Shown in pieces: positions 43,610-54,613 of a stretch of 64,000 nt of DNA. Below the pieces are notes generated by a model. That model was not told where the DNA came from. It was given only the letters and a program-made list of their open reading frames with translations, and ran no database searches. Every line of letters starts with the position of its first letter. The stretch's first letter is position 1. The stretch comes from Pisolithus tinctorius (taxonomy: Eukaryota > Basidiomycota > Agaricomycetes > Boletales > Pisolithaceae): NCBI GenBank assembly GCA_024663395.1, contig JANFAH010000028.1, forward strand, positions 62,001 through 126,000, written 5' to 3'. The translations under genes were made by a program, and so were the position numbers.

Positions 43610-43617
43610 CCCTTTTT

Positions 43618-44400
43618 CACCTGATACTCCCACTTATATAATCTAATTAGACACAACATTGCTGTTTTGATGTCGGTCTAAGACGAGGCATTTGAGGTGT
43701 TTTCCCCCTCAATGAATAATTATTGAATACCGTAGAGTACTTAAAAAGATTAAGAGCCACTAATCTACCTGAGCCACACCAGGCGCACTGGGATTTGTCA
43801 TCAGCGCCCCGCCGATGCTTCCCACGCACGTGACGCGTCATCCCCGACACCTCTCGTCGCCGTTGTCGACAGCGAGCTCGCATATCTCAACAACTACACA
43901 ACGTACAAGCATCGGACTTTCACGGCCGTATAGTACTCATGTCTAGCTAGCATTCTGTAACATATTATTAATTACCACTAGATACTATGTACTAAGCTAC
44001 CAGAGCTGTGCCGCGTCGCACTAGGATTTGTCATCAACACACCACCCGTACTTCCCACGCACGTGACGCGTCATCCCCGACACCTCTCGTCGCCGTTGCC
44101 GACAGCGAACTCGCATATCTCAACAACTACACAACGCGCAAACATCGGACTTTCACGGCCGTATAGTACTCATGTCTAGCTAGCATTCTGTAACATATTA
44201 TTAATTACCACTAGATACTAAGTACTAAGCTACCAGAGTGGTGCCGCGTCGCACTGGGCTTTGTCATCAACGCCCACCCGTACTTCCCACGCACGTGACG
44301 TGTCATCCCCGACACCTCTCGTCGCCGTTGTCGACAGCGAGCTCGCATATCTCAACAACTACACAACGCACAAACATCGGAATTTCACGAACATGTAGTA
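43618..44400 (+). repeat. Left terminal inverted repeat with 232-bp tandem units
   Basis: Unique outer arm, then ~2.7 units of 232 bp (GACACCTCTCG at 43846, 44079, 44311). Each unit holds CACGCACGTGACGCGTCATC and AACATATTATTAATTACCAC. Candidate transposase-binding repeats. Confidence 0.9.
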
Positions 44401-44487
44401 TTCATACGCAACTAGTGCCCTGTCACATGAAATCCCATATTCTCGCCAAAGTCAACTGATGCAAGGACATTTAAGTAATTTATCTAC

Positions 44488-47400
44488 TTATGTGTCCGTA
44501 GTAACACTTAGGATATGCTGCAACGCCTCGCATTGCTCCTCCAAATCATCCCCATGATCATCGTCAAGGTCTTCATCGGCCTCCTCTTCGCCATCATCTG
44601 TACAAATAGGTGGGGATGACAATACGGACTGTATAGGGACCCGCTGCGGGACATGTGCGCTATCCCCTGGGCCACGTGATACGCTAATGCCAGGGGTTAG
44701 GGTACCCCTGAATCCGGGGAGATGGGATATTTTTTCGAGGGTACGGAGGTGCAATGGGGTGAATCGGGAGCGGATGGCACGGTACCTAGAAATTTGGTAT
44801 GCAAGCGCGGGGTTGGTATCCTGGTAGAGGGCTTCACAAGCCCGGAGGTAGCGGTCTTCGTCAATAAGATATGTAACAACACGACGAATCTCCACATTCA
44901 GGCGAACCACTTCTTCCTCAGCCCGGCATAACTTGAAATACATGTTTATGGCGAGGCGGGCAGTGGGTGACGCCCACGGGCGGGTCGATATGTCCTTCCG
45001 CGTATCTCTGAGAAGATCAAAGTCAGCTAGGAATGCGTACTCAACAACCTCCTCAAATTCCAGTGTTCGACGGCCGAGGACTTTGGCTGCAGCATTATAT
45101 TGGGAGAGGGCAGCCCGGATGGCAGCTGAGCGTGTTTGCAAGGCCTTGCCAATGTGCTTACGAAGTTTATAGCCTGCAATCGTCAGTGCGATACAAATTC
45201 GACTAAGGTGGACTTACCAGTGCCAGACTGGTTCATCTTTGACAGCTCGAAGATCCTTGACACAACCAATCGCTCAACGTTATCCAATGCCCGTTGATAT
45301 TTTCGATTGGCGACCAGGCGGGCTGCCGCCTGCCATTCCTCGTCCTCCGGTACCCAGCGGTGTGTTATCTCGAGGTGTCCCTCGAGCTCCTGTACAGCCT
45401 TCAAGTCCTTTTTGTAGTTCTCTTGGGCATGGCGGCGCACGGTCTCCGCTTGCCTTGTCGCACTGCTATCACTCCGAGGGGACGCTGCATCGTTAGCCAT
45501 AATGACAGTCCATGTAGATAGGATCGACTCGAGGTGTTTGCTAAATTTACTGATAGTCAGAACGCTAACCTCTCTATGTAATAGTGCCTACCTGCTCCCA
45601 GCTAGATTTACAAGCCGTTGCCAATATTCCATCTGCAGCGTTTCTTCCACAGGCTCGCGCAGGAGGGACCTGAGATATTCACGTTCTTCGTCCAACCAAA
45701 GCTTAAAGGTATCAGGGTCGCTTACTCCTAGCTCGCGCATCAGCCGTTCGAGGGTCAAGCGGCCATTAGAAAGAAGATCGAGGGCTTGTTTGTAGTTATT
45801 CAGTAAGAACTTTGCTGCTTAGGATTAGATACGTCGAGATGGGTAAGGTTAATTACTTACTGAGATTTGCGTACACTTCCAGTTCGTCATTGTGTTCAAA
45901 ATAGCACGCAATTGCCTGCCTTCTGTGAAAAATTGACGCGTATCGAGTAGACGGCGCAAGGGCATTGCTCTTTGAAAAAGCCCTCTCGCAACCTTCGAGA
46001 TCTTCGAGTCCGAGACCTTCGACGTAGGTTGTGAGGTTGTCTAACTGACATAGCCTGTTATGAGCGTGGCCGTGGAACGCATTAACAAGAGACGTATAGT
46101 TGAGTGATCGTGCACGCTCGCCCAGGACGCTAGATGCTAGAGTGGTCTTGAATCAACAGCCAATGTCATATCCACCGCCCAAATCTGAACCAAACGTGTC
46201 GAGGAGTTTGGACGTCACCGCGAGCGCGTACTTGGACCTGTGTATGAGTGAGTTTGCGAGTAGGGCTTTCTAAGTAGTCTACGTACTGTTCGCCACTTTG
46301 TACCATATCTGCGATAAGCAGGCAGAAGCCATGCCGACAGACTGCTATGAAGACTCCTGTTTCGTCAAATACGCTCCACATTTTTTGTGTAGCACTGTCC
46401 TTCATGTTTTTCCAGCGCTCCGCACAAAGGTTCCCATCACCATCCTATCATGCAGAAAGAAGTCTAGAAAATAAACGCGAACAGAACAACTTCTCACCTC
46501 CGCAACGATGCTGTGACCTGTCTGCCGTCCGGATGCAAATTTCTCGACAAAATCACGGGTCAGATATTGTTCATGATGAAACGCACCCTCCAGCATAGGA
46601 TGAGAAGGGGTAAGAGGGGAAGCATCATCGAGGTTGCCGTCCAGTACCCTGGTCGCCACTCTCTTGAGAGAGTCATTCCCGTCCTGAGCAAATAGCATCT
46701 TGAATCGCATTGTCGGTTCGTCCTGCAATTCGTAAGTACAAGAAGGACAGCCGTGCTTGAGCCGCCAGTCAGGTTGATCGCGCTGCAGTGCCTGGTGCAC
46801 AAGGTTCGAGACGAGTGCTAAAATTTGCAAGTAAACGTCGAGCGCGATGGAAAATTGACGTGAGCGGTGATTGTGAAATGGGACCTGGATGGTCAAGGGT
46901 TAGCGTTCAGGTACCTCGGAATATATATTAATCGCAAACCCCGTGTATATCGCAGAGCGATTTGACGTATCCCTGGATGGAAAGATGGGGGCAACGTTGA
47001 CGAACAGTGTGGTACAGGTCAAGAGCTTGCACTGTAATGGCGACCTTGGGGGTAATGGGAGAGCACGGGATTAGACCGTGGCACACGAGAGCTGAAGTTA
47101 GGTAACGATCAGTAGGCCCTACAGTTATAGAAGTCTTCTCAGCGCCTACTATGCCATGAGTATCTGCACATGTACTACAGTCGGATTGACTTACAGAAGA
47201 CGTCTAACACCAGTACACTGAGTAGCCTGGTGTCTACGCCGTCGCTCCTCTGCTGTTCTTCCCGTGTACGTCGCTCATCCGAATCAAAAAATCCCCGTCC
47301 ACTCGCACCCTTCCGGATCAAGGACCAGGCCATGTAAGCTTCCACCATCGCACCCATTTGCACATTGAATGCAGCCATCCGTTTAGCAGTACGATCCCGG

Positions 47401-47678
47401 AACGTACGATAATCCGGGCGTTTCCCCCCGATCTTCTGAGAAGCGCTGAACACAGTCAGTTATTATTACTTGGTCCCTGTTAATTCTAACCTTTTCCAGA
47501 ATTCTCCCAATAACCCGCTGGTGAGTTCTTGAAACTCACCACCAGCATGACTGACATCAAGTGGCTCCGTTCCGTCCAGGACCATTGCGCCATACTCGTC
47601 GCTTTCGTATCCGTCGTCTGCGGCCTCACCGACTGAGTTGTTCAACGCCGGATCTCGCAGCGCCTCAAGCGCATGCTT
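44488..47678 (-). pseudogene. KDZ transposase, one in-frame TGA
   Basis: Nine exons on the minus strand: 47678-47491, 47445-47195, 47163-46940, 46884-46498, 46444-46287, 46237-45861, 45814-45592, 45540-45218, 45173-44488; introns 45, 31, 55, 53, 49, 46, 51 and 44 bp. All phases agree; 2,817 nt, ~938 aa. Motifs: HGLIPCSP, HGCPSCTYEL, DGNDSLKR (first catalytic Asp), MWSVFDETGVF, RHGFCLLIADMVQSGEQ, GGYDIGC (second Asp), FHGHAHNRLC, EDLEGCERAFSKSNALAPST (Glu), FLLNNYKQAL, TRSAAIRAALSQYN. A TGA (46153-46155) follows YDIGC directly; CGA is the likely ancestor. A 5' exon may lie at 47983-47747 (MAGGAVRRHSHRC) but the phase does not join cleanly. Confidence 0.85.
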
Positions 47679-48094
47679 CTAGGTCACAGTCATCTCTATC
47701 GAAAGTGAGCCTTTTTTGTTAACCGTAACAAAAACGTACCTCTTAGTCACTCTTGTTTGCGTTCTGCCGCACGTGCAGCCCGTTCAGTGATTTTTCTTGG
47801 ACCTGCCAATTCATGGAGAGTTCGCGTAACTCCTGCAGATTGGTGAACTTTGGTCTGGACCCGACGTATTCGCGAGGATGTCAAGCTTCTGCATCTGTGG
47901 GAGTGACGACGCACTGCTCCCCCTGCCATGACTGGCTTCCGTGCTTCATGCCATTGAGCGGGACCTATCCTCACCAAGACCACGTGACGTTACCGCACTG
48001 TCAAGACTTATTGCAAACTTATCTGCCGTCGCTAGCATTCGCACTCCTGTCCTTGAGTATTGTCCTTAGCACTGACCCACAAGCTTGTCTTACC

Positions 48095-48964
48095 ATGGTG
48101 TCGAGCGTCGAAGGTAGGACAGAAGACTTATTTTTTTTTATCTAGGATTTTACATCTTGTTAGATGATGGTAGCTGGCAGATAGCACGATCTACAGAGCG
48201 AGATACAGAGGAGACGATCACGCGTATCACAACGACCAAGACTACTCGTGAAGGGACTACGGAAACCAAGGTCAAAACCGTGGTGAAACGTAGTCATGTT
48301 ACCAGGACCACTCTTAGGAGTCCTCGAAAATGTAGTCCGTCGGCGACAATTACTGGCTCTACCACTACCCCACCATCGGCCTCAAGCACCCCGCAATCCA
48401 CTCCCAAGTCACAATCTGGTTCAGCCTTCCCCCCTTCAGTACCTCGTGCGTCCACGTCTCACAGCAGTGTCATTCCCCACCCATCGGATGTCCCGCGGCC
48501 AACTTCCCCACCTGAAGGGTTTTACCTCGTTATCGTCGGGCAAGAGGTTGGCATATTTTATACATGGTATTATTTGTTTTGTCTATCCTCTGTTCAGCTC
48601 AATCTCGAACCCATAGGAAAGATGCCGCATTGCGGGTTCTCGACGTCAGTGGCGCAGTTCACTACAAGTGTAAGACCTTCCAGCGAGCCCTTGCGGATTA
48701 TACGGCCGCATATAACAACGGCGAACTGCGCGCAATCCCGATCCCTGGTGGGCCCTTCTGGCCCACGGCACCACGTACGCCCTCGCCCGCTCTCAGTGAA
48801 GGCGAACAATCCTACTGGGCTGAAGTGGACGACCTGTCAGATCTGTTTGGCTCAGTTCAACTCGGCCGCACTAAGACCTGGTGGGTTTCTTGCCCTTTCC
48901 AAAAGGTCGTTTTATTAATTGTAACAGCGATGCTACCCCGTCTTCATCCACTGCGAATACTTAG
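48095..48964 (+). CDS. RNase H1 N-terminal/viroplasmin-like domain protein inside the KDZ element
   Basis: Exons 48095-48113, 48146-48566, 48617-48880, 48928-48964; 741 nt, 246 aa. The core is GFYLVIVGQEVGIFYTW (end of exon 2) joined to VSGAVHYKCKTFQRALADYT (exon 3), the pattern of the RNase H1 N-terminal hybrid-binding domain also found in caulimovirus viroplasmin (Caulimo_VI). It is followed by IPGGPFWPTAPRTPSPALSE. Upstream is a Thr/Lys-rich then Ser/Pro-rich region. Binding of RNA-DNA hybrids or dsRNA is the family role; here it is inferred. The first exon and its 32-bp intron are uncertain, although they make the phase close. Lies head to head with the transposase gene. Confidence 0.68.
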
Positions 48965-49610
48965 TAGTTACTACCGAAATCATGTCCTTTACTACTATCA
49001 ATGACCGCAACATCTTGAATTGAAGTCTTAGGTGATCATATATGTGAATGAGCGTACTGTAGTCTACACTGTGACCCGAAATTGGTGCGCATGCGACATT
49101 GGTGATTGTACACGCCAGTGTTGCATGAACACAGTGTAGTGTGTGAACGAGTGTATTGTAGTCTACACATTGTGACCCAACATTTGTGTCCACGCGACAT
49201 TGAGGAATTCGATAAGGTAAATCAGTGCTATGCAATTTCCACAATATATCATGTAATGTCCAGGTATCGGACAATGACCGCTAGATAGTATATGAGCTAA
49301 CGACGGCAAAGGCGTCACGCGTACGCCGATAGGGTATGTTTTCGAAGATACCGGTAGTGAATACTCTCTGATAGCGAACGGATTCGCTATCATGTTCGCT
49401 ATCACCACAACCCAATACACGTCTCCTGTAATTTGAATCACTAATTTTACAAACCAGATTTCAAGCGCGGGAATGTTTAGACATGAATTGTATGCAAAAG
49501 TACTACATAGAGAGGTAATAGCGAGACCCCGGACAAGGGGGGAGTTGAGGGAGCTGACACTTCAGATATCGGGCGAGGAATATATAGACGTAGTTTGTAT
49601 GACGAACGGG
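48965..49610. repeat. Intergenic region of KDZ element with ~103-bp tandem duplication
   Basis: GAATGAGCGTACTGTAGTCTACAC (near 49045) recurs as GAACGAGTGTATTGTAGTCTACAC (near 49148) with the following GTGACCC...GCGACATTG. No gene. A short inverted word GAACGGATTCGC/GCGATAGCGAACG is near 49,375. Confidence 0.65.
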
Positions 49611-50392
49611 CTAGACAGTAAAGTAGTAACGAGCTTCGGAGATTCGAGACAAGGGGGATATAGGTGCATAGTCGTCTAATTTGACTTCGAAAAAGCGTAG
49701 TTCAGTCAATAAAGATGTGAGCAAGTCAAACACTTGTTCGTACAAGTCTGCAGCTCTGTACCCCATACCCCTGAAACCTTTGCGTGCAATATTCCTCAAA
49801 ATCCAAACAAGCCGTCTCCCTTCTTCAACGTGGGCCTCACATTGTGAAAAGAACGAGTCAGTTGCAAGTCGGCCCCTGCCCTGTGCATGCCTAAGTTGAT
49901 CATGGAACTTCTTCGGCCATGTTGACTCCGTGCCCCATTCAGATTGCCAGTCGGCGATGAGTTGCCTGACCTTCTCGAGTGGAGGGGGTTCCGAAAGTGC
50001 CGAAGGGTGTAGGTACGAGTTGGGCTCTGGGTCCGGGGACGCTCCAACTGCGCTGGTCGGTGTTGGGTTGCGGGTGGTATCTTCACTCTCTGTGACAAGC
50101 TTCCTAATAACAGAGTTAATATGTCGAAATATCTGGAGAAGGTGCTTACTTGGTCCTGTTCCTACGAGTGTAGATCGATCACCGTTGATAGACAGGATCA
50201 ATCGTACCGGCCGACCTACCTGGCAGCACGAAGTCTTGCTTTCTCCCTCTGCTCTTCTCGCACTCTGAAAACATGAGTTATATACAGTATAAAGGGAGGT
50301 AATAAAAATATTCTGTACCCTGGCTTTGATAGCCAGCGCTCAGTGGCTGCGCGTTGCTTATCTTGCTTCCTCGCAGTGCGTGTGGCTCCCAT
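49611..50392 (-). CDS. 207-aa protein of unknown function inside the KDZ element
   Basis: Exons 50392-50319, 50264-50220, 50161-50150 (12-nt microexon), 50103-49611; introns 54, 58 and 46 bp; 624 nt, frame closed. The N-terminus is strongly basic (MGATRTARKQDKQRAATERW, then EEQREKARLRAARNRTKK), like a bZIP basic region or a nucleolar signal. The middle is Pro/Ser-rich, and the C-terminal half alpha-helical (ADWQSEWGTESTWPKKFHDQ, RRLVWILRNIARKGFRGMGY, DLYEQVFDLLTSLLTELRFF). Same strand as the transposase, 2 kb upstream of it. DNA binding is a guess. Confidence 0.6.
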
Positions 50393-51133
50393 GTACGAAC
50401 ATGAAGACGCTAGCTATGGGAAAGGGATGTTGGGTTTAGTTTACACGGATACTAAGGGTAATATACAAAACTTACCTGGTGCGACTTGGGAGGAAGCAGA
50501 TTACAGAGATACTTAGGCTTGACGCGTGACGTTCGGACTCAAGAAATTTCTCCTGGTCACATGACCATTGTCGTGTGTCTCGGGGTCTGTCATCTCTGAC
50601 TGTTGGCCTAAGTCGCCATAGAAGGATCCAGGTACTGAAATCTTTTCTAGCGTAGCTGAATTAATGGTCTTTTTATCCAGAGTTCTATTGTATGGACTTC
50701 CACGCGATCGTCCAAACCCGTCTATCCAAATTTCCCCGAGCTCTGCGGTAATTGCGTTCGTTGTATCATACAGAAAACAAAATGCTGATTAGACGGTTCC
50801 CATTAATGCAGATATTACGATGTGATGGCGGCCATACTAGTGCCCACTCAACTTTGGCGAGTTGACAGCAGGGTATCGGCTTCATCCACGGCAAGTGTTA
50901 TCAATAGCCCATTACTCACATCGCCTCTAGTATATTATTGTATCATGCTGATGCCCCCACAGGTCCACATGGTCTTATATCGAGTTGTATATATCGTACC
51001 TGATCGTCCTAATGACAGAGTACACCAATGTCATCCGCTCAATATCACGCTGTCAAATTTTTATTTTATTTTCCAGGATTTGGAGACGTGCAGCAATACT
51101 ATAGACTTCGCGCCTCGATGCTCTACCTACAGC
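50393..51133. promoter_or_regulatory. Divergent intergenic region of the KDZ element
   Basis: Lies between the start of the 207-aa gene (minus) and the 553-aa gene (plus), so it should hold both promoters. No clear TATA pair seen. An upstream plus-strand frame from 50822 runs in phase into the 553-aa gene, so its start could be earlier than 51134. Confidence 0.45.
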
Positions 51134-53003
51134 ATGGACCAATATGTTTTCACCTTTCCTCCCACCACCTTCGGCCCCGCAGGAGGTGATTCCGCATGTC
51201 CGACTCCAGGGTTCAACTCGTATAATTTCCGGAATCCGTCCGATGCGCCATTCCCTCCCAACGCTGCACAATCGCCTCCACAGCCTTTGGAATTGCACAA
51301 CCCATCCTATGGTTATCCTGCACTGGACCCCGCTCTCTTAGCCATTTCTGTCCCTCGGCTCGAGTCATCTCTGACTTCGAGACCCGCCCTACCTTCATCT
51401 ACTGCTCAAGTAACGGCGTCCGCACATGTCCCAATTTCTTGCACCGCGGTAGACCATCATCCGGACACCACGCCTGCCGAGACTGCCCATTCAAATGCTA
51501 CCTCTGTCCCCGGCGTGACCACCTCTAGTACACATCCCAATAACGGCACACCCAACGTTTGCAACGGCGGAGTCTCGGTGGTTAAAGCGGCAGGCAACAA
51601 GTCCACTTGGGCTACCCGAAACCCTGGACGGCCAGTCATGCAGCCTCGTCAGCCACTCTCCGCTGTGGAGAAAGATCATCGCAGCGTGCATGCGGCATCA
51701 AGGCAAATTTCTGCAGCACAACGGAGGGATCGTGACACGCTTCTGAACGATGCCATCCAGTCCCTAGCCAATGAGTTCGAAATGAAGGTACAGGCCGTTG
51801 CGACTACACATAACGTTACAAGTGAGAAGGTCAAGAAGCTCCTGGGCGGTCACAAATATTATCAGAACCCGTGCAGCACACAACTGGCCAATGCCATTAT
51901 TCACGACAAGGCAAATGAGGTTAATGAAGGTAATTTCCCACTCTGATGCTGTTATATTCCAGCTCTAACTCATGCATCACAGGTCGCGCTCGTGGGGAGA
52001 AGCTCTCCCTCCAACAGATTCGGGAGTTGGCAAGGGCAGACCCCAAATACCAGGACATGACTCAAGATGAAAAAGATGAATTGTTACGTGCCCTCACGGA
52101 ATATCGCACTCTCAAGAACGTGAGTGTTCGCGCTACAAATTCTGCAGCGGCGCGCGATGCACAGTCGACCTTGGAGCATGTTTTTAAAATAGTGAGTTCC
52201 GCGTTCTATTCTAATGATCATCAACTGAATTCCTATAGCTTGATGGACTTGCCCTTCGCACTGGAATATACGCATGCCTCTTTGCCACTCGTGGACACGT
52301 CTACGACTCATCGCAGCCTTTCTGGTACGGAACTGATAATGTCATGGACTTTTGGGAGGATGTTATGGACCTCGAACCCGACGAAATCGTTCGTAAACTG
52401 GAACAGTGGGCATGCATGCATGGAAAAAGTAGGTCGAGAGTGGCGTTAAATAGCTATTAAGTATTGAATTACGTTGTTCATACAGACATCGAGGAGCGCA
52501 ACTCCGTAGAAGGCATGCAGCGAATGTGTGCCCGCATTCTTAATTCTGGTCTCCGTGAGTATTCGTTCTACCTTCTAACAGCTCCTGACATGCGCGTATA
52601 CACAGGTGTTGTTGCCAAGAAAAAAATCCGAATCAACTTCGTCAATTTTGAGGTGGCCATCAAGGAGAAATACGGCATTGAGCTACTTGGGTGGCCGGAG
52701 AGTGTTCCGTTCCAGTCTCCTCGCGCCACTACAAATGCTGAACACCTCCGTACCCTTCGTGACGCGCTTAAAGCAGGTACATGTCGTTGGGCGTACATGT
52801 CTACGCAACAACGTATGCAACACGCGGATCGACTTAAGGAACGACGAATTGCTGGGGAAGCGGTTGGAAAACCTCGCAAGAAGCGCTCCGATGCGGGCAG
52901 GAAACGCCGCCGCACAGCACCAGGCAAGGGGAAAGCTCCAAAAAGCGTCGCATTGATCGACTCGTCTTCGGAGGACAACAGCTCCACGGAAGATGACGAG
53001 TAA
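51134..53003 (+). CDS. 553-aa KDZ-element accessory protein (intact, 5 exons)
   Basis: Exons 51134-51929, 51983-52191, 52239-52428, 52486-52554, 52606-53003; introns 53, 47, 57 and 51 bp; 1,662 nt exactly in frame. Residues 1-200 are Pro/Ser/Thr-rich and probably disordered. Residues ~225-330 are helical and basic (SAAQRRDRDTLLNDAIQSLA, SEKVKKLLGGHKYYQNP). Exons 3-4 encode GIYACLFATRGHVYDSS and NVMDFWEDVMDLEPDEIVRK. The C-terminal block is KKIRINFVNFEVAIKEKYGI, ELLGWPESVPFQSP, LRDALKAGTCRW, and a basic tail (GKPRKKRSDAGRKRRRTAP) ending in an acidic Ser stretch. The GWP...LRDAL...KRR tail recurs, as I recall, in many mushroom hypothetical proteins. No enzyme fold recognised; no 2-oxoglutarate oxygenase motif. 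Confidence 0.72.
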
Positions 53004-53275
53004 TGAGATGTAAGTTTTTATCCACCCTACTTTAATACTTCGTCACGCACACATTTTAACGCAGGATTTTCCGGTCGCTGTCGATGTAACGCACTTATAT
53101 ATCTTCCGAAAGTTATGCACAGTCACGCGCCGTAGATCAATTCATTCATGCATCCACTGCCCTTCTATATACACTGTACGTCTGCGTGAAAATCCGATGT
53201 TTTTACAATATACAACAGTCATGATACGCGTACTTGGTGAGGAGACTATGTCCAACGGTGTTTGCCGAACACATG
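53004..53275. other. Spacer inside the KDZ element
   Basis: No gene; AT-rich leading into the right repeat array. Confidence 0.5.
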
Positions 53276-54605
53276 ACAACTGGTGTGTCACCCAGTGCGA
53301 TGCGGCTCTGGTAGCTTGATGCTTAGTACGTAGTATCCAGCAATAATCAATAATATGTTACAGAGCACTAGCTAGCCATGGGTACTATACGGCCGTGAAA
53401 GTTCGATGTTTGTGCGTTGTCTTGTTGTTGAGATATGTGAGCTCGCTGTCGACAACGGCAACGAGAGGGCACGTGCGTGGGAAGTACAGGTGGGCGTTGA
53501 TGACAAATCCCAGTGCGATGCGGCACGGCTCTGGTAGCTTAGTACAGCGATCATCAATAATATGTTACAGAGCACTAGCTAGACATGGGTACTATACAGC
53601 CGTGAAAGTCCGACGTTTGTGCGTTGTGTAGTTGTTGAGATATGCGAGTTCGCTGTCGGCAACGGCGACGAGAGGTGTCGGGGATGACGCATCACGTGCG
53701 TGGGAAGTACGGGTGGTGTGTTGATGACAAATCCTAGTGCGACGCGGCACAGCTCTGGTAGCTTAGTACATAGTATCTAGTGGTAATTAATAATATGTTA
53801 CAGAATGCTAGCTAGACACGAGTACTATACGGCCGTGAAAGTCCGATGCTTGTACGTTGTGTAGTTGTTGAGATATGCGAGCTCGCTGTCGACAACGGCG
53901 ACGAGAGGTGTCGGGGATGACACGTCACGTGCGTGGGAAGTACGGGTGGGCGTTGATGACAAAGCCCAGTGCGACGTGGCACCACTCTGGTAGCTTAGTA
54001 CTTAGTATCTAGTGGTAATTAATAATATGTTACAGAATGCTAGCTAGACATGAGTACTATACGGCCGTGAAAGTCCGATGTTTGTGCGTTGTGTAGTTGT
54101 TGAGATATGCGAGTTCGCTGTCGGCAACGGCGACGAGAGGTGTCGGGGATGACGCGTCACGTGCGTGGGAAGTACGGGTGGTGTGTTGATGACAAATCCT
54201 AGTGCGACGTGGCACAGCTCTGGTAGCTTAGTACATAGTATCTAGTGGTAATTAATAATATGTTACAGAATGCTAGCTAGACATGAGTACTATACGGTCG
54301 TGAAAGTCCGATGCTTGTACGTTGTGTAGTTGTTGAGATATGCGAGCTCGCTGTCGACAACGGCGACGAGAGGTGTCGGGGATGACGCGTCACGTGCGTG
54401 GGAAGCATCGGCGGGGCGCTGATGACAAATCCCAGTGCGCCTGGTGTGGCTCAGGTAGATTAGTGGCTCTTAATCTTTTTAAGTACTCTACGGTATTCAA
54501 TAATTATTCATTGAGGGGGAAAACACCTCAAATGCCTCGTCTTAGACTGACATCAAAACAGCAATGTTGTGTCTAATTAGATTATATAAGTGGGAGTATC
54601 AGGTG
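53276..54605 (-). repeat. Right terminal inverted repeat with 232-bp tandem units
   Basis: Inverse of the left arm, but with five to six tandem units (GAGAGGTGTCGGGG at ~53670, 53903, 54133, 54368; degenerate units at ~53,284 and ~53,460). The outermost ~230 bp match the left arm with about one difference, a CpG/CpA. Unequal copy number between arms suggests expansion by slippage or unequal exchange. Confidence 0.9.
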
Positions 54606-54613
54606 CCCTTTTT

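What the first reader, a model, noticed from the sequence alone, without database searches (positions are those of the whole stretch)
43618..54605. Complete KDZ transposon carrying three extra spliced genes
Sequence: perfect 8-bp duplication CCCTTTTT, near-identical inverted ends, and four multi-exon genes between them. Three are frame-clean (553 aa, 246 aa, 207 aa) and lie beside the KDZ transposase in divergent pairs. Known: KDZ elements are large, use 8-bp duplications, and can carry passenger genes. Inference: a viroplasmin/RNase H1-N protein, a basic 207-aa protein and a basic-tailed 553-aa protein may be accessory functions (end binding, nucleic-acid protection, host control), because they stay open while the transposase has a stop.
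Basis: partly seen in the sequence, partly recalled or inferred. Interest (0 to 1): 0.88.

Follow-up and report, generated by a model that had tools for sequence, protein, structure and literature searches.

The report
Mushroom transposon with three companion genes
A large DNA transposon in a mycorrhizal mushroom travels with the same three extra genes, and these genes are so old and so regularly found beside one transposase lineage that they are probably part of how the element moves or avoids silencing, although what they do has not been tested here.

Summary
Window 43618-54605 is a complete KDZ DNA transposon in Pisolithus tinctorius: 8-bp duplication, 811-nt inverted ends (97%), a KDZ transposase with one TGA, and three spliced genes (553, 240 and 207 aa). 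Twelve copies with both ends were found and all twelve hold the three extra genes, several of them broken. A second TIR-bounded family (52-64% identical in the transposase core, 24-49% in exons of the extra proteins) has the same four genes in the same order. Of 120 other KDZ loci compared, 118 have no extra gene within 30 kb; the other two neighbour copies of these families. In other Boletales, homologues of two or three of the proteins share contig lengths, once 6,903 bp. So this looks like an old four-gene transposon lineage, not chance capture. Function is inferred: the 240-aa protein has an RNase H1 hybrid-binding-type domain without nuclease; the other two match no known domain. Best guess: transposition or anti-silencing helpers. 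New variant of a known kind.

The parts
43610..43617 (.). left target-site duplication CCCTTTTT
43618..44428 (+). left terminal inverted repeat, 811 nt, begins CACCTGATACTCCC
   Evidence: 97% complementary to 53795-54605; 31 matches to its first 163 nt in the genome
43784..44389 (.). left subterminal array, 2.6 copies of a 233-bp unit
44488..47964 (-). KDZ transposase gene, multi-exon; upper (5') limit approximate, first exon not resolved
   Evidence: Pfam PF18758 E 7.7e-73 on exon pieces joined with X at the stop; own-genome searches
46153..46155 (-). in-frame TGA in the KDZ exon; of 14 other copies readable there 6 have CGA, 4 CAA, 4 TGA
48095..48964 (+). 240-aa protein with RNase H1 N-terminal (viroplasmin) domain; exons 48095-48113, 48164-48566, 48617-48880, 48928-48964
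   Evidence: hand model; PF01693 26.8 bits, cut-off 21; same length as deposited P0187
49611..50392 (-). 207-aa protein, basic N-terminal helices; exons 50392-50319, 50264-50220, 50161-50150, 50103-49611
   Evidence: hand model; homologues of the same length, such as P0118; P0118 predicted all-helical
51134..53003 (+). 553-aa protein, basic C-terminal tail; exons 51134-51929, 51983-52191, 52239-52428, 52486-52554, 52606-53003
   Evidence: hand model; 117 homologues
53470..54439 (.). right subterminal array, 4.2 copies of the 233-bp unit
53795..54605 (-). right terminal inverted repeat, ends GGGAGTATCAGGTG
54606..54613 (.). right target-site duplication CCCTTTTT

Best explanation
The element is one copy of an old lineage of KDZ cut-and-paste transposons whose full form carries four genes in two divergent pairs: KDZ transposase with a hybrid-binding-domain protein, and a small basic helical protein with a basic-tailed protein. 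Shown: the element is complete; near-identical copies lie at different sites, most with perfect 8-bp duplications, so it moved in the recent past; the four genes recur together in two divergent families. Inferred: the transposase cuts and joins at the CACCTG ends and makes the 8-bp staggered target cut; the 207- and 553-aa proteins act on element DNA (binding the 233-bp subterminal arrays or assembling the ends); the 240-aa protein binds RNA:DNA hybrid or double-stranded RNA from the element and blunts RNA- or methylation-based silencing. The division of labour would resemble multi-protein plant transposons (En/Spm TnpA, MuDR mudrB, VANDAL VANC; recalled).
For: The three extra genes lie in all 12 two-ended family-1 copies and the KDZ core in 11 (C34 lacks that stretch). 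A second family, read in full at one locus, has its own 597-nt ends (98.8%), CACCTG termini, 8-bp duplication GCTACTCC and the same genes in the same order and orientation. Pairing ends by hand gives 14 two-ended family-2 copies; KDZ, 240 and 553 genes are detected in 14 of 14 and the 207 gene in 10 of 14. Of 32 KDZ loci of the two families 30 have at least one extra gene within 30 kb; of 120 other KDZ loci 118 have none and 2 are neighbours of such copies (lists capped by the tool). The listed matches of a distant Hygrophoropsis 553 homologue all fall in loci of these two families. In other species two or three of the proteins fall on contigs of equal length: 23 lengths outside this genome, 4 under 100 kb. 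The 553 tree has two old Boletales clades, one with each family, and the 240-aa tree is consistent with that. At the oldest family-1 split (copy C11) non-CpG changes are short of nonsynonymous ones: KDZ 23 N/29 S against 36.6/15.4 expected (none of 2000 shuffles as low), viroplasmin plus 207 genes 17 N/16 S against 24.0 N, P 0.005.
Against: No function was tested and no transcript data were at hand. The 553 gene cannot be tested at the C11 split because that copy lacks it; in C34 and C3b the non-CpG changes of the extras do not differ from neutral (P 0.16 and 0.61). The KDZ gene was not sought beside the three genes in other species; only shared contig lengths were seen, and of about 70 different lengths under 100 kb only 4 are shared. 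The 207 tree is unresolved. The 553 and 207 proteins match no known domain, so DNA binding is a guess from charge and helices. The 553 family could not be folded and no fold search ran.
Confidence: 0.68

Rival explanations
1. The extra genes are host genes captured as cargo, useful to the fungus or neutral to the element, as in large cargo-carrying mobile elements.
For: KDZ elements are known to pick up genes (TET/JBP, PMC12730594, abstract, section 3.2 and passages seen); the extras have diverged more between the two families than the transposase core.
Against: In this genome the 553 gene was found only in loci of the two families, apart from one fragment on C116 with no family end seen near it. 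The same trio in the same order in two families whose 553 proteins split before the Pisolithus, Suillus, Hydnomerulius and Hygrophoropsis lineages is not expected of casual cargo.
Confidence: 0.12
2. Only some extras matter: one (most likely the 207- or 553-aa protein) is a second transposition subunit, and the hybrid-binding-domain gene is a hitch-hiker.
For: The subterminal arrays (2.6 and 4.2 units) look like protein-binding sites; 207 and 553 are basic (pI 9.6 and 9.0).
Against: The 240-aa family keeps a VGQEVG core in 23 of 23 aligned members, and its gene was found in 12 of 12 two-ended family-1 copies and, by hand pairing, in 14 of 14 two-ended family-2 copies.
Confidence: 0.15
3. Open reading frames without function: chance exon models in a transposon.
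For: Within family 1, changes between most copies are neutral in the coding frames.
Against: The proteins are recognisably kept between the two families (24-49% by exon; 32% and 38% over hand models of the 207 and 240 proteins); deposited or database proteins have the same lengths; homologues occur in Suillus, Hygrophoropsis and Leucogyrophana, and for 553 in Mycena.
Confidence: 0.02
4. The genes belong to a second mobile element nested in a KDZ element.
For: Some copies are stretched by other DNA (C2 29.4 kb, C34 18.4 kb, C3b 41.8 kb).
Against: No second long pair of inverted ends inside the window copy among the 25 longest inverted repeats listed; same arrangement in a second family whose end sequences share little beyond CACCTG.
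Confidence: 0.03

Closest known systems
Zisupton-type KDZ DNA transposons (Kyakuja-Dileera-Zisupton superfamily)
   Same: KDZ transposase domain, terminal inverted repeats, 8-bp duplications (PMC12730594, passages seen)
   Different: Carries three further conserved genes; sublineage within KDZ not placed by a transposase tree
Cryptococcus KDZ1-KDZ3, shown to be mobile (PMC12810828, passages seen)
   Same: About 9-11 kb, 139-241-bp TIRs, 8-bp (KDZ2/3: 4-8 bp) duplications, KDZ transposase with CxC1 domain
   Different: The passages describe only the transposase; TIRs here are 811 and 597 nt, with 233-bp arrays in family 1; whether those elements hold similar extra genes was not looked at
TET/JBP-bearing KDZ and other fungal transposons (PMC12730594, abstract, section 3.2 and passages)
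   Same: Transposon carrying an extra gene thought to counter methylation-based silencing
   Different: No TET/JBP match in the three proteins; three genes, not one; Kyakuja there has 7-bp duplications and no TIRs
Long allele of helpo1.3 in Pleurotus ostreatus with capD, capE (viroplasmin) and capF and TIRs (PMC4289320, two passages seen)
   Same: A viroplasmin-domain gene beside a predicted RNase-H-fold nuclease, called a putative transposase, with TIRs
   Different: Interpreted there as genes captured by a Helitron; sequence not compared here, so kinship is only suggested
Plant transposons with accessory or anti-silencing proteins (En/Spm TnpA, MuDR mudrB, VANDAL VANC; recalled)
   Same: Proposed working principle: transposase plus element-encoded helper acting on subterminal repeats or methylation
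   Different: No sequence kinship tested or claimed

Membership tests
KDZ transposons | KDZ transposase domain PF18758 | tested here: met
   E 7.7e-73 over profile positions 1-217 of 217, on exon pieces joined with X at the stop
KDZ transposons | Terminal inverted repeats | tested here: met
   811 nt, 97%
KDZ transposons | 8-bp target-site duplication | tested here: met
   10 of 12 two-ended copies perfect; the other 2 have swapped flanks consistent with an inversion between them; family 2, one copy checked, perfect
KDZ transposons | CxC cysteine cluster beside the KDZ domain | tested here: inconclusive
   CxC3 16.6 bits and CxC1 14.5 bits, both under their cut-offs of 26.6 and 26.9
KDZ transposons | Transposition activity | not testable with these tools
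   only indirect: near-identical copies at different sites with duplications
Kyakuja sublineage | 7-bp duplication, no TIRs (as described in PMC12730594) | tested here: not met
   8 bp and long TIRs
Zisupton sublineage | Position in a KDZ transposase tree | not tested
   no reference transposases were fetched
RNase H1 N-terminal (viroplasmin) domain proteins | PF01693 domain | tested here: met
   26.8 bits (family 1) and 33.2 bits (family 2), cut-off 21; solved relative 1qhk E 6.3e-5 by profile
RNase H1 enzymes | Catalytic RNase H domain | tested here: not met
   only PF01693 found in the protein at E up to 1
TET/JBP-carrying transposons | TET/JBP dioxygenase gene | tested here: not met
   no such Pfam match in the three proteins, nor in 52 and 31 aligned homologues of the 553 and 207 proteins

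The most novel reading that the evidence does not exclude
The trio is a transposon-encoded anti-silencing and end-assembly machine: a hybrid- or dsRNA-binding protein of viroplasmin type, working like the plant-virus silencing suppressor that shares its domain, plus two new DNA-acting protein families, kept by a KDZ lineage because its host destroys copies by CpG-directed mutation tens to over a hundred times faster than by other C to T changes.
Probability: 0.25. Interest if true: 0.82.

Novelty: new variant of a known kind. Interest (0 to 1): 0.62.

Why it matters
In the papers seen here KDZ transposons are described as a transposase, sometimes with a TET/JBP gene. Here is a lineage in which three more genes, two of them with no known domain, appear to have stayed with the transposase through the divergence of several Boletales lineages. 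It gives two new protein families a context in which their function can be tested, and it offers a case where a transposon and a strong CpG-directed decay in its host can be read off the same copies.

Tried and rejected

Raw dN/dS between copies (for the older copies C3b, C34 and C11, 0.27-0.66 in the three extras): rejected as evidence of selection. Most differences are CpG-type transitions, and against a neutral expectation for that class most copies fit neutrality. One search also used KDZ blocks out of frame (31 stops) and slightly wrong ends of the viroplasmin and 207 models; one search stopped on an error in the 207 gene; one search used frame-checked KDZ blocks but the old ends of two genes; one search repeats the test with corrected models and is the one I rely on. 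One search ran 10 of the 16 copies (C18, C1b, C23, C61, C77 and C134 were not run) and dropped gene-by-copy rows under 40% coverage (553 in C11). (intactness) still used the old ends of the viroplasmin and 207 models.

An automatic exon finder gave poor models and was not used. The own genome cannot be searched by alignment; a Pfam family and single proteins were used instead. The PF01693 search of the genome found 7 matches, none in the element copies; an intron splits the domain there, so I take that search to be blind to it. A scan of viral contigs for the 553 family found no relative. No Pfam, NCBIfam or PDB relative beyond weak, scattered matches was found for the 553 and 207 families. 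Structure: only a 207-family protein (P0118, 94% identical) was predicted (mean pLDDT 77.7, all helical).

Literature: searches for KDZ transpos with fung, Kyakuja with Zisupton, viroplasmin with transpos and basidiomycet, Pisolithus with KDZ, RNase H1 with KDZ, KDZ with passenger gene and transpos, Zisupton with terminal inverted repeat and 8 bp, PF01693 with fung, KDZ with Boletales. In their listings I saw no description of this four-gene arrangement; the library lacks most subscription papers, and the DOI I recalled for the 2014 KDZ-TET/JBP paper is not held.
Full report
What was checked. The stretch 43618-54605 is bounded by CCCTTTTT on both sides and by inverted arms of 811 nt that are 97% complementary. 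The ends read CACCTGATACTCCC...GGGAGTATCAGGTG. Near both ends lies an array of a 233-bp unit, 2.6 copies on the left and 4.2 on the right. The host is Pisolithus tinctorius: deposited proteins so named lie on contigs whose lengths equal those of C2, C3 and C40 of the genome that holds the window. The window is C28:62001-126000.

Genes. On the minus strand lies a KDZ transposase (PF18758, E 7.7e-73, whole profile) with a single TGA at 46153-46155 in the exon blocks placed. On the plus strand at 48095-48964 is a gene for 240 aa; a deposited P. tinctorius protein has the same length and, rounded, 100% identity. On the minus strand at 49611-50392 is a gene for 207 aa, with a 12-nt exon; a database homologue has the same length and 94% identity. 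On the plus strand at 51134-53003 is a gene for 553 aa in five exons. The exon models were made by hand.

Same ends, same genes. The first 163 nt of the left end match 31 places in the genome. Paired by hand they make 12 copies with both ends (C77, C61, C18, C28, C40, two on C1, two on C3, C4, C2, C34) and 7 single ends. Ten of the 12 have a perfect 8-bp duplication. The two on C1 lie 3.9 kb apart and have swapped flanks: the left flank of each is the reverse complement of the other's left flank, and likewise on the right, as expected if recombination between two inserted copies inverted the DNA between them. C77 and C18 share the flank GAATATAC and may be one insertion seen twice. All 12 hold the DNA of all three extra genes (at least 99% of exon bases), and 11 of 12 the KDZ core; C34 lacks that stretch. 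No pair of ends without the genes was found. Intactness differs: free of premature stops and frame-breaking indels are the 553 gene in 4 of 12 copies, the 240 gene in 7, the 207 gene in 7, and the KDZ blocks in 1 copy that is fully covered and 1 that lacks part (old gene ends). Some indels may be assembly errors.

A second family. Searching the genome with each extra protein found a second, distant set: by exon, 553 at 27-49%, 207 at 24-28%, the 240-aa protein at 34-47% identity. One locus was read in full (C2:995920-1006539, L041/L042). It has inverted ends of 597 nt (98.8%), termini CACCTGTGATTCCCACCC, the 8-bp duplication GCTACTCC, and the four genes in the same order and orientation, with the small basic exons of the 207 gene at matching places in a hand model. 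Its end sequence matches 37 places. Pairing them by hand gives 14 two-ended copies, some stretched to 29 or 82 kb. The KDZ, 240-aa and 553-aa genes are detected in 14 of 14, and the 207 gene in 10 of 14 (C75, C37, C10 and one on C12 are the misses); at about 25% identity a miss is not proof of absence.

Only this lineage. KDZ exons in the genome fall into family 1 (67-99% identical to the query), family 2 (47-64%) and others (36% or less). I compared 152 KDZ loci typed with loci of the extras collapsed. Of 32 loci of families 1 and 2, 30 have at least one extra within 30 kb (29 at least two, 22 all three; at C1:1844228 the 553 gene counted is that of a neighbouring copy). The two without are C23:125882 and C19:974848. 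Of 120 other loci, 118 have none, and the two exceptions (C61:285778, C2:883173) lie 20-30 kb from a family-1 or family-2 copy. Both KDZ searches scored only 150 candidates, so the 120 are not all other KDZ loci. Conversely 5 of 31, 3 of 28 and 4 of 35 loci of the 553, 207 and 240-aa genes have no family-1 or family-2 KDZ hit within 90 kb; these are at C34, C116, C1:6.6 Mb, C11:0.87 Mb and C4:3.8 Mb, and all but C116 have a family end within about 20 kb. The listed matches of a distant Hygrophoropsis 553 protein all fall in the same loci.

Other species. The searches returned 117, 69 and 42 homologues, together in Pisolithus, Suillus, Rhizopogon, Scleroderma, Hydnomerulius, Hygrophoropsis, Leucogyrophana, Melanogaster, Imleria, Piloderma and, for 553 only, Mycena. 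Two of the three searches scored only the 8,000 best candidates. The tool gives no gene order, but it gives contig lengths. Twenty-three lengths outside this genome are shared by homologues of two or three of the proteins (all three once, P. albus); four are under 100 kb: 6,903 bp (Hygrophoropsis, 207 and 553), 19,702 bp (Suillus clintonianus, 207 and 553), 83,153 bp (Leucogyrophana, 240 and 553) and 91,619 bp (P. marmoratus, 207 and 240). Against this, there are 42, 17 and 15 lengths under 100 kb for the three proteins, so most small contigs show only one of them; each row stands for a cluster and the lists are incomplete. In P. albus the 207 and 240 homologues on one contig have consecutive gene numbers. 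Shared length is a proxy; for contigs of a megabase it is weak. The KDZ gene itself was not sought in other species.

Age. I built trees from chosen rows. The 553 tree (37 of 117 proteins) splits most Boletales sequences into two clades, one with family 1 (support 91/87), the other with family 2 (97/93); both hold Pisolithus, Suillus, Hydnomerulius and Hygrophoropsis. The 240-aa tree (15 of 42 proteins plus the family-2 model) also parts family 1 from family 2 (97/92); its family-2 side holds only Pisolithus and Melanogaster. The 207 tree (17 of 69) is unresolved. So by the 553 tree the families split before these genera did, unless transfer between species explains it.

Decay and selection. 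In the 8.9-kb core, copies differ from the majority of eight young copies mostly by C to T change at CpG. For the C40 copy it is 141 of 574 CpG sites against 8 other changes in 8,900 bases; per base, 141 of 1,148 against 3 of 3,304 for non-CpG C to T, about 135-fold; for the older C3b copy 429 of 1,148 against 22 of 3,307, about 56-fold. Decay ranges from 0% (C61) to 96.5% (C11) of CpG sites, without a TCG preference. The window's TGA is such a change. Neutral shuffles that keep the class of each change reproduce the N and S counts of the CpG class: of 39 rows only viroplasmin in C11 (none of 2000 as low) and 553 in the window copy (P 0.024) are low, and KDZ in C3b leans the other way (P 0.99). 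Non-CpG changes are too few in most copies. In the oldest lineage, C11, they show a shortage of amino-acid changes: KDZ 23 N and 29 S against 36.6 and 15.4 expected; viroplasmin 11/9 against 14.6/5.4 (P 0.053); 207 6/7 against 9.5/3.5 (P 0.039); the two together P 0.005. KDZ in C4 is also low (2/5, P 0.034). For the extras together C34 and C3b show no shortage (P 0.16 and 0.61). These are many tests and small numbers; the cross-family conservation is the stronger argument. So extras open and transposase stopped, in one young copy, means little.

What the proteins may do. The 240-aa protein holds an RNase H1 N-terminal domain (26.8 bits, cut-off 21), related to the solved yeast-type domain 1qhk (profile E 6.3e-5), with the aligned tryptophan invariant in 23 members and no RNase H catalytic domain found. 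Such domains bind RNA:DNA hybrids and double-stranded RNA, and the plant-virus protein that gave the domain its name suppresses RNA silencing (both recalled). A 207-family protein (P0118) is predicted all-helical, with helices 9-21 and 26-51 and a four-helix part at 86-188; the window's protein has net charge +10 in its first 50 residues. The 553-aa family has a conserved middle and, in the consensus, a basic KPRKKRSDAG stretch near its end; the last 90 residues have net charge +9. Neither family has a convincing Pfam, NCBIfam or PDB relative. The most likely reading is that the transposase cuts and joins, the two basic proteins act on the ends or the arrays, and the hybrid-binding protein counters silencing; only the recurrence of the set is shown.

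Known work. KDZ elements of 9-11 kb with TIRs and 8-bp (or 4-8-bp) duplications are mobile in Cryptococcus (PMC12810828, passages). Fungal KDZ elements can carry TET/JBP genes (PMC12730594, abstract, section 3.2 and passages). A Pleurotus Helitron allele with a viroplasmin gene, a gene with a herpes tegument-like domain and a predicted RNase-H-fold nuclease, with TIRs (PMC4289320, two passages), may be a relative read there as Helitron capture, but I could not compare sequences. I found no description of the four-gene lineage in nine full-text searches of an incomplete library.

Noticed in passing
window 44420-53320 and copies L009-L040: Copies of this element decay mostly by CpG to TpG/CpA change, evenly along most copies, about 135-fold (C40) to 56-fold (C3b) faster per base than other C to T change; looks like RIP-like or methylation-driven mutation in a basidiomycete.
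   Followed up: partly
L017-L020 (C1:834144-844666 and C1:848572-860857): Two copies 3.9 kb apart have swapped 8-bp flanks, the mark of an inversion by recombination between them.
   Followed up: yes
L023-L024 (C4:236069-248654): Copy is a mosaic: about half of CpG sites decayed at both sides, nearly none over 2.5 kb in the middle, with indels at the borders; gene conversion or misassembly.
   Followed up: partly
L009-L010 and L013-L014 (C77 and C18): Two contigs carry the same insertion with the same flank and the same related end about 2.5 kb upstream: allelic or duplicated contigs.
   Followed up: partly
G000, whole genome: Very KDZ-rich genome: 160 domain matches with only 150 of 463 candidates scored, most outside the two families with the extra genes.
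   Followed up: no
L029-L031, L032-L033, L034-L038: Three copies are stretched to 18-42 kb by other DNA between their ends; the inserts were not studied.
   Followed up: no
553 gene, intron 52555-52605: The fourth intron keeps GT..AG in only 9 of 13 copies; of two deposited models from other copies one (P0001) reads through it and one (P0003) through its first part.
   Followed up: no
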